Below, piece by piece: positions 351 to 2,252 of a stretch of DNA of 64,000 nt. This stretch comes from Alphaproteobacteria bacterium (GTDB lineage: Bacteria > Pseudomonadota > Alphaproteobacteria > UBA6615): the NCBI GenBank assembly GCA_009694135.1, contig SHVS01000002.1, forward strand, positions 39,067 through 103,066. The letters run 5' to 3'. The notes under the pieces are model-generated. The model had not been told where the DNA came from. It saw nothing but the letters and a program-made list of their open reading frames with translations, and ran no database searches. The position numbers and the translations under genes are program-made. Within the stretch, counting starts at the first letter, position 1, and every line of letters begins with the position of its first letter.

Positions 351-824
351 TTAGCCTCTACTGCCGCCAATCTGAGTATTAAGTGTCGCGCCAAGCGACG
401 CGTAGCGATTGACCAATGCTTTATAGGCCTCAAAGTCCCGCTTATACTTGGCCATCGGGTAGTCGCCGATCCCCTGGATTTTCGCAACCATCTGGATGCA
501 TATGTCTCGCAAGTGCAGAATGGTCGATAATAGGGCCAAAACAAACTCCAGGAACACTGGCGGTTGCTGATAGAAATCCGCGCTTTTTCCGACTCGTTCA
601 AGATCGGATGCAAGGATCGTCAGCTTCGCAACATGTGACTCGTAGTCAATTTTTTGAAACAGGCCAGGGATCGGCAGCACTTTTCGAATCGAGAATTTGA
701 AGATCGCGTCATGCACTTTCACGTACGCGGTGAGGATATTATGGGCGTCAAACAGGGCCTGCTGCAGAGATGGTTGCTCAGAACGTTCAGCAATAGAGGG
801 ATGGCTCGGAGAGCCTTTAGGCAT
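351..824 (-). CDS. Unrecognised 157-aa protein, downstream partner of an overlapping pair
   Basis: No family was recognised. The start ATG at 824 was preferred over the longer track start because AAGGTGG lies 5 nt upstream and the codon overlaps the end of the preceding gene by 8 nt, a layout typical of translational coupling. The predicted protein is mostly helical, with a hydrophobic stretch around residues 90-104 followed by a basic-aromatic C-terminal third (residues 124-142). It has no signal peptide and no Cys or His cluster. Base composition is less GC-rich than the flanking moaB and radical SAM genes, suggesting acquired DNA. It could be a two-gene accessory or defence module with the 110-aa gene upstream; that is inference. 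Confidence 0.7.
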   Translation of the reverse strand: MPKGSPSHPSIAERSEQPSLQQALFDAHNILTAYVKVHDAIFKFSIRKVLPIPGLFQKIDYESHVAKLTILASDLERVGKSADFYQQPPVFLEFVLALLSTILHLRDICIQMVAKIQGIGDYPMAKYKRDFEAYKALVNRYASLGATLNTQIGGSRG

Positions 825-1149
825 CAAGGCCACCTTCGCGGCGGCTAACGAATCGTTCGAGAACAAGTATCTCATTTTCCAAGTTCGTGATCTCGCGTGC
901 CGTTGCCGGGTTAACACTGCCGTCCTTGGGAAACATGCCGATAGATGCGCGCCGTTCCCTTAACGCGGACAAAAGACTTCGCAACCCGCTTAGTTCTTCA
1001 TCGAGTGACAAGTTGCCGACTCCTTGCTGATTTCCGATATAGATATAGTGAGTTGGTGCCGAATTCGATACGTCAGCGGTGGTTCCGTCGGAACCATTGG
1101 ATTTCAATTTCAGGCACCCTAAATGTTCTTGCTTTGTTCCATTCGGCAT
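817..1149 (-). CDS. Unrecognised 110-aa protein, upstream partner of an overlapping pair
   Basis: No family was recognised. Residues 1-33 are polar and probably disordered, residues 34-46 carry a Tyr/Gly-rich motif (YIYIGNQQGVGN), and residues 49-105 look like a helical hairpin split by a Gly/Pro-containing loop near 71-81. The ATG at 1149 is the first after an upstream stretch that reads like out-of-frame radical SAM sequence, so the longer track start at 1194 is disfavoured. No good ribosome binding site is visible before 1149, which leaves the start uncertain. The gene overlaps the next one by 8 nt and lies head to head with the radical SAM gene, with only 14 nt between start codons. Confidence 0.65.
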   Translation of the reverse strand: MPNGTKQEHLGCLKLKSNGSDGTTADVSNSAPTHYIYIGNQQGVGNLSLDEELSGLRSLLSALRERRASIGMFPKDGSVNPATAREITNLENEILVLERFVSRREGGLDA

Positions 1150-1163
1150 GGCAGAGAACGACC

Positions 1164-2252
1164 ATGTCGAGCGATGTCCTCCCCGACCGGGCAAAAAAGG
1201 GGCGCGGCGCGGTCACGAACCGTCCCGGCCGCTTCGAGCCGCATGCGCGCGCACGCACAGCTGATGGGTGGGAAGTCGCCGGGGCAGAGGATGACGAGCC
1301 CTCGCCGCGCACCACGGTCACGGTCGAACGCGCGCGCGCGATCATCACCCGCAACGATTCCCCCGACATTCCGTTCGACCGCTCGATCAATCCCTATCGC
1401 GGCTGCGAGCACGGCTGCGTCTATTGCTACGCGCGGCCGACACACGCCTATCTGGGGCTTTCGCCGGGCCTCGATTTCGAGACTAAGCTGTTCGCCAAGC
1501 CGGAGGCGGCGGAGCTGCTGAAGCGGGAACTGGCGCGCAAGGGCTATAGCCCGGCCATGATCGCCATGGGCACCAATACCGATCCCTATCAGCCGATCGA
1601 AAAGCGCCTCGGCATCACCCGCGCGATCCTGCAAGTCCTGGCCGATTGCGGCCATCCGGTCGGGATCACGACCAAGAGCGCGCTGGTGCTGCGCGACTTG
1701 GATATTCTCGGCCCGATGGCGGCGAAGGGCTTGGCGCGGGTCGCGGTCTCGGTGACCACGCTCGATGCGGTGCTAGCGCGCAAGATGGAGCCGCGCGCCG
1801 CGACCCCTGCCCGCCGCCTGGGCGCGATCGAGGGACTGGCCGCCGCCGGCGTGCCCGCCATGGTGATGGCGGCGCCGATGATCCCCGGGCTGAACGACGC
1901 CGAGCTGGAGCGGATCCTGGAAGCCGCGCGCGACGCCGGCGCCAGCGGGGCCGGCTATGTGCTGTTGCGCCTGCCGCTGGAAATCAAGGATCTGTTCGGC
2001 GAATGGCTGGCCGAGCATTACCCGGATCGCGCCGCGCGGATCGAGGCCTTGGTGCGGGAAACCCGCGGCGGCAAGCTTTACGATGCGGGGTTCAAGACCC
2101 GTATGCGTGGCACCGGGATCTACGCGCAACTCCTGGCTGAGCGCTTCCGGCTGGCTTGCCGTAAGCTCGGGCTCGTGACCCCGCGCGAGCCCTTGCGTAC
2201 GGATCTCTTTCGACCACCGGGAGACGCCGCGCAGTTTCGCTTGGCGCTGTAA
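1164..2252 (+). CDS. PA0069-family radical SAM protein
   Basis: A 362-residue radical SAM enzyme of the PA0069/Rv2578c type, function unknown. The CxxxCxxC that ligates the 4Fe-4S cluster is visible as C81, C85 and C88 within NPYRGCEHGCVYCYARP, followed by the family's THAYLGL segment and a TNTDPYQPIEKRL stretch in the barrel. The ORF track begins at 945, but the sequence before the ATG at 1164 is the antisense of the unknown minus-strand gene, and family members begin close to the chosen start with a basic N terminus leading to GRFE. The gene is monocistronic in appearance, and ribF follows after 65 nt. The substrate cannot be deduced from sequence. Confidence 0.9.
   Translation: MSSDVLPDRAKKGRGAVTNRPGRFEPHARARTADGWEVAGAEDDEPSPRTTVTVERARAIITRNDSPDIPFDRSINPYRGCEHGCVYCYARPTHAYLGLSPGLDFETKLFAKPEAAELLKRELARKGYSPAMIAMGTNTDPYQPIEKRLGITRAILQVLADCGHPVGITTKSALVLRDLDILGPMAAKGLARVAVSVTTLDAVLARKMEPRAATPARRLGAIEGLAAAGVPAMVMAAPMIPGLNDAELERILEAARDAGASGAGYVLLRLPLEIKDLFGEWLAEHYPDRAARIEALVRETRGGKLYDAGFKTRMRGTGIYAQLLAERFRLACRKLGLVTPREPLRTDLFRPPGDAAQFRLAL

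What the first reader, a model, noticed from the sequence alone, without database searches (positions are those of the whole stretch)
351..1149. Two unrecognised genes overlapping by 8 nt between moaB and a radical SAM gene
The 110-aa and 157-aa proteins are joined by an 8-nt overlap with a ribosome binding site inside the first gene, and both differ in composition from the chromosome. Such tightly coupled pairs of unknown small proteins are often toxin-antitoxin, immunity or defence modules.
Basis: partly seen in the sequence, partly recalled or inferred. Interest (0 to 1): 0.52.

Follow-up and report, generated by a model that had tools for sequence, protein, structure and literature searches.

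The report
Orphan gene pair beside SOS-box radical-SAM gene
Two small, tightly coupled genes with no detectable relatives have taken the place of a kinase-like gene that most related bacteria carry at this spot, right next to a DNA-damage (SOS) control site that the first-stage reader missed; what the two proteins do is still unknown.

Summary
The two overlapping minus-strand ORFs (110 aa, 817-1149; 157 aa, 351-824) are there as described, with the 8-nt overlap and an SD-like AAGGTGG before the second. Such a coupled pair appeared in 0 of 6000 composition-matched random sequences. GC is 50% against 65-70% in the neighbours. Neither protein has a credible relative in Pfam, NCBIfam, PHROGs, PADLOC, PDB, plasmids, phages, viral contigs or up to 400 genomes per search. 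New facts: (1) all 15 family relatives with moaB beside the radical SAM gene carry an APH-like kinase gene (PF01636) in this interval; the pair replaces it, and no other copy was found in this 79%-complete genome. (2) A LexA/SOS box (GTTCN7GTTC) precedes the radical SAM gene in all 15 and is kept in the window at 1125-1139; the other two AT-rich boxes in the genome precede recA and lexA. (3) The box lies inside the claimed 110-aa ORF, whose first ~46 codons look non-coding, so gene 1 is probably shorter (64 aa from TTG 1011, or 96 aa from TTG 1107). Toxin-antitoxin or immunity function is compatible (acidic 7 kDa before basic 17.5 kDa protein) but unproven; no defence genes lie next to the pair.

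The parts
351..824 (-). gene 2: 157-aa basic (pI 9.2), all-helical orphan protein
   Evidence: SD AAGGTGG, GC123 0.56/0.37/0.58; AF2 helices 20-49, 61-80, 88-117, 124-156, pLDDT 68; no homologue
817..1149 (-). gene 1 as claimed: 110-aa orphan ORF; the N-terminal ~46 codons are probably not translated
   Evidence: only weak short matches
817..1011 (-). likelier gene 1: 64 aa from TTG 1011 (pI 5.0), helical hairpin (helices 49-70 and 81-108 of the 110-aa numbering)
   Evidence: AAGGAG at 1025-1020, AF2 order begins near residue 46-49, codon-position bias present only here
817..824 (-). 8-nt overlap of the two ORFs
1125..1139 (+). LexA (SOS) box GTTCTTGCTTTGTTC, only GTTCN7GTTC in the 64-kb window, 24 nt before the rSAM ATG
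   Evidence: conserved in 15 of 15 relatives examined
1164..2252 (+). PA0069-family radical SAM gene
   Evidence: NF033668 E=4e-156; PF04055
3..308 (+). 3' part of moaB-like molybdopterin-binding-domain gene (starts outside the window)
   Evidence: PF00994 on L003:6758-7372

Best explanation
A real, lineage-specific two-gene cassette has replaced the APH-like kinase gene that related genomes carry between moaB and the SOS-box-bearing PA0069-family (SplB-like) radical SAM gene. The replacement (about 309 to 1110) kept the LexA box, so the cassette now reads away from a LexA-type divergent region. Gene 1 most likely makes a small acidic helical hairpin and gene 2, translationally coupled to it, a basic helical-bundle protein. 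Inferred, not shown: the two form a complex, the acidic protein holding the basic one in check (works like a toxin-antitoxin or restraint pair), with expression raised by DNA damage through the shared box.
For: Replacement: in 15 relatives the moaB-rSAM interval carries an APH-family gene; none found in this genome while 9 of 9 relatives searched with the same query have it; no convincing remnant in the interval. Real genes. Foreign composition. SOS box; this genome has lexA; GTTCN7GTTC as LexA box and predicted SOS control of splB in alphaproteobacteria are published (PMC3323433; PMC12700426). Acidic-then-basic order, pI 5.0 then 9.2.
Against: No homologue, so neither conservation as a pair nor selection on the proteins can be tested. 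No toxin or antitoxin family match and no HEPN R-x4-6-H motif. Structure models are single-sequence and of modest confidence. No convincing minus-strand promoter was found, and the box is the rSAM gene's ancestral one, so it may not act on the pair. One incomplete genome in 30 contigs.
Confidence: 0.3

Rival explanations
1. Remnant or cargo of a phage or other mobile element: two orphan small genes left after an insertion and deletion that removed the APH gene, with no dedicated toxin-antitoxin role (for example a phage accessory or anti-defence pair, or neutral).
For: Low GC, no relatives found in the class, clean replacement between two conserved genes.
Against: No integrase beside it, no flanking direct repeat, no match to phage or viral sets.
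Confidence: 0.35
2. Dedicated antitoxin-toxin or phage-defence module, with no SOS link.
For: 8-nt coupling with an SD inside gene 1, small acidic protein before a larger basic one, accessory site.
Against: No family match in PADLOC, Pfam, NCBIfam or PDB; no defence neighbours; no DNA-binding domain recognised.
Confidence: 0.2
3. Only gene 2 is a functional gene; gene 1's frame is a leader or chance ORF over the promoter region of gene 2.
For: Codon-position signal significant for gene 2 only (p=0.0001 versus 0.26); N-terminal half of gene 1 overlaps the SOS box and looks regulatory.
Against: A 60+157 coupled arrangement is rare by chance (5 of 6000); the C-terminal part of gene 1 models as a helical hairpin with pLDDT near 90 over much of the helices from sequence alone.
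Confidence: 0.15

Closest known systems
Type II toxin-antitoxin operons (organisation only)
   Same: small acidic protein encoded first, larger basic one second, overlapping frames
   Different: no sequence or motif match to any toxin or antitoxin family; no DNA-binding domain recognised
LexA-regulated splB (COG1533) loci of alphaproteobacteria (PMC3323433)
   Same: GTTCN7GTTC box directly upstream of a radical SAM gene of that general type
   Different: here a divergent orphan pair abuts the box; relatives have an APH-like gene reading toward the rSAM gene instead
APH phosphotransferase family (PF01636) gene of relatives
   Same: occupies the same moaB-rSAM interval
   Different: unrelated sequence, opposite strand; the pair replaces it

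Membership tests
Type II toxin-antitoxin system | match to a known toxin or antitoxin family | tested here: not met
   no hits at E<=1 in Pfam, NCBIfam, PADLOC
Type II toxin-antitoxin system | two co-directional, adjacent or overlapping small genes, antitoxin usually acidic and first | tested here: met
Type II toxin-antitoxin system | toxicity of one protein neutralised by the other | not testable with these tools
   needs an expression assay
HEPN RNase toxins | R-x4-6-H motif in a helical bundle | tested here: not met
   no such motif in either protein
Known anti-phage defence system | PADLOC profile match or defence neighbourhood | tested here: not met
   neighbours slt, moaB, rSAM, ribF, ileS
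LexA (SOS) box, alphaproteobacterial type | GTTCN7GTTC upstream of SOS genes, lexA in the genome | tested here: met
LexA (SOS) box, alphaproteobacterial type | LexA binding and DNA-damage induction | not testable with these tools
   needs EMSA or reporter assay

The most novel reading that the evidence does not exclude
A previously undescribed two-protein module, under control of a captured LexA operator, that acts on DNA damage (toxin-restraint or SOS/prophage-linked sensing), unrelated in sequence to all known families.
Probability: 0.12. Interest if true: 0.6.

Novelty: new member of a known kind. Interest (0 to 1): 0.33.

Why it matters
It shows how an orphan gene pair can replace a conserved neighbour cleanly while keeping, and perhaps borrowing, an SOS operator. 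If the pair is damage-inducible it would be a new SOS-linked module. It also shows that the longest ORF drawn over a promoter can give a wrong start, so that regulatory DNA is read as protein.

Tried and rejected
Remnant of the APH gene under the pair: only short hits, best E=0.008 over 29 residues, rejected. Weak matches of gene 1 to other genomes (E 0.002-0.007, 36-42% over about 45-60 residues): two lie in genomes of one genus at the same stretch of the query; the one read lies over a MDEILSSIR... (PopZ-like, by eye) N-terminus, taken as chance similarity of a short helix. PDB sequence hits of gene 1 (flagellin 0.005 and others): no stretch passing on its own, judged coiled-coil similarity. 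Fold searches: nothing below E=0.1. Flanking repeats: no direct ones. The terminator-like hairpin at 1077-1099 (+) is within chance expectation. The first chance test used only the first ATG of each frame and so did not count the real pair; replaced.

Full report
OBSERVATION. The two ORFs are at the stated coordinates on the minus strand: 817-1149 (110 aa) and 351-824 (157 aa), overlapping by 8 nt. GC is 0.50 for both against 0.68, 0.70 and 0.65 for the radical SAM, ribF and ileS genes, and third-position GC 0.51-0.58 against 0.81-0.85. In order-2 Markov sequences of the same composition an equivalent coupled pair occurred 0 times in 6000, a relaxed one 5 times. Codon-position GC is significant for gene 2 (p=0.0001) but not for gene 1 (p=0.26).

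HOMOLOGY. Nothing in Pfam, PADLOC or NCBIfam at E<=1, one PHROG at 0.19; nothing in PDB for gene 2 and only coiled-coil-like matches for gene 1; nothing in plasmids or phages by tblastn at E<=1, viral contigs or genome contigs (this tool finds close relatives only when given a single protein). In 95 relatives and samples of 385 class and 399 phylum genomes, gene 2 matches only itself, and gene 1 has only short matches at E 0.002-0.007, one of which lies over a MDEILSSIR-type N-terminus; all are judged chance.

WHAT RELATIVES HAVE THERE. Of 24 genomes of the family (this one included) 19 have the radical SAM gene. In the 15 relatives' loci where moaB lies within the fetched flank the interval is about 1.15-1.3 kb and holds a gene of about 340-355 aa on the plus strand (frameshifted in L020), an APH-family phosphotransferase (PF01636, E=1e-13 for the L005 protein). 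The same query finds nothing in this genome and matches in all 9 relatives tested beside it; the genome is 79% complete, so a copy elsewhere is not fully excluded. The pair's interval (309-1163) has no convincing APH remnant.

SOS BOX. The relatives share GTTCTTGTTTTGTTC (two have GTTCTTGTTATGTTC, one GTTCCTGTTTTGTTC) shortly before the radical SAM start: 14 of 15 within the APH-rSAM gap, the 15th (L017) overlapping the APH stop codon. The window keeps GTTCTTGCTTTGTTC at 1125-1139, the only GTTCN7GTTC in 64 kb; 0.014 would be expected in the 855-bp interval. In the whole genome GTTCN7GTTC is not enriched (22 matches against 60 for the reversed control), so the motif alone proves little; but the three matches with AT-only or nearly AT-only cores lie upstream of recA, lexA and this gene (recA and lexA recognised from their translations, lexA also by PF01726). 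The direct repeat as LexA box of alphaproteobacteria, and predicted SOS control of splB there, are published (PMC3323433; also PMC12700426, and PMC8565304). The radical SAM gene is PA0069 family; that it corresponds to the splB of those papers is inference, not tested.

START OF GENE 1. ATG 1149 would put the box inside codons 4-9, 14 nt from the divergent start. It has the weakest SD of those compared (-2.3). Residues 1-45 are disordered in the model and their codon positions show no GC bias, while residues 47-110 do; TTG 1011 follows AAGGAG by eight bases, with a TATATCTATATC stretch upstream. I favour 64 aa (about 0.45), then 96 aa from TTG 1107 (0.3), then 110 aa (0.25). These weights are judgement.

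MECHANISM. Gene 2 models as a helical bundle (pLDDT 68), gene 1 as a helical hairpin; no fold match below E=0.1. pI 5.0 then 9.2 fits an acidic partner binding a basic one. Complex formation, toxicity and SOS induction are inferred only. In the window the sequence between box and rSAM ATG lacks the TATCAT-like element seen in several relatives (by eye), so the replacement may also have altered rSAM expression.

VERDICT. A real accessory orphan pair with a probably over-long first gene, at a site where a kinase gene was replaced, next to an SOS-type operator. Defence or toxin-antitoxin function remains open.

Noticed in passing
1125-1164: SOS/LexA-type box before the PA0069 radical SAM gene is conserved across the family although the gene upstream changed; the -10-like TATCAT of several relatives is not evident in the window.
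   Followed up: partly
L005-L015, L017, L018, L020, L021: An APH-family kinase gene is conserved between moaB and the radical SAM gene in the family; its role there is not known to me.
   Followed up: partly
1077-1099: Perfect palindrome GGTTCCGTCGGAACC (odd centre) followed by a T-rich stretch, inside the claimed gene 1; could be a terminator or operator, within chance expectation.
   Followed up: no
L003 1-4268: Genes reading as hopanoid/squalene synthesis (cyclase and two squalene-synthase-like proteins, glycosyltransferase-like protein) lie upstream of slt-moaB; named from their translations only.
   Followed up: no
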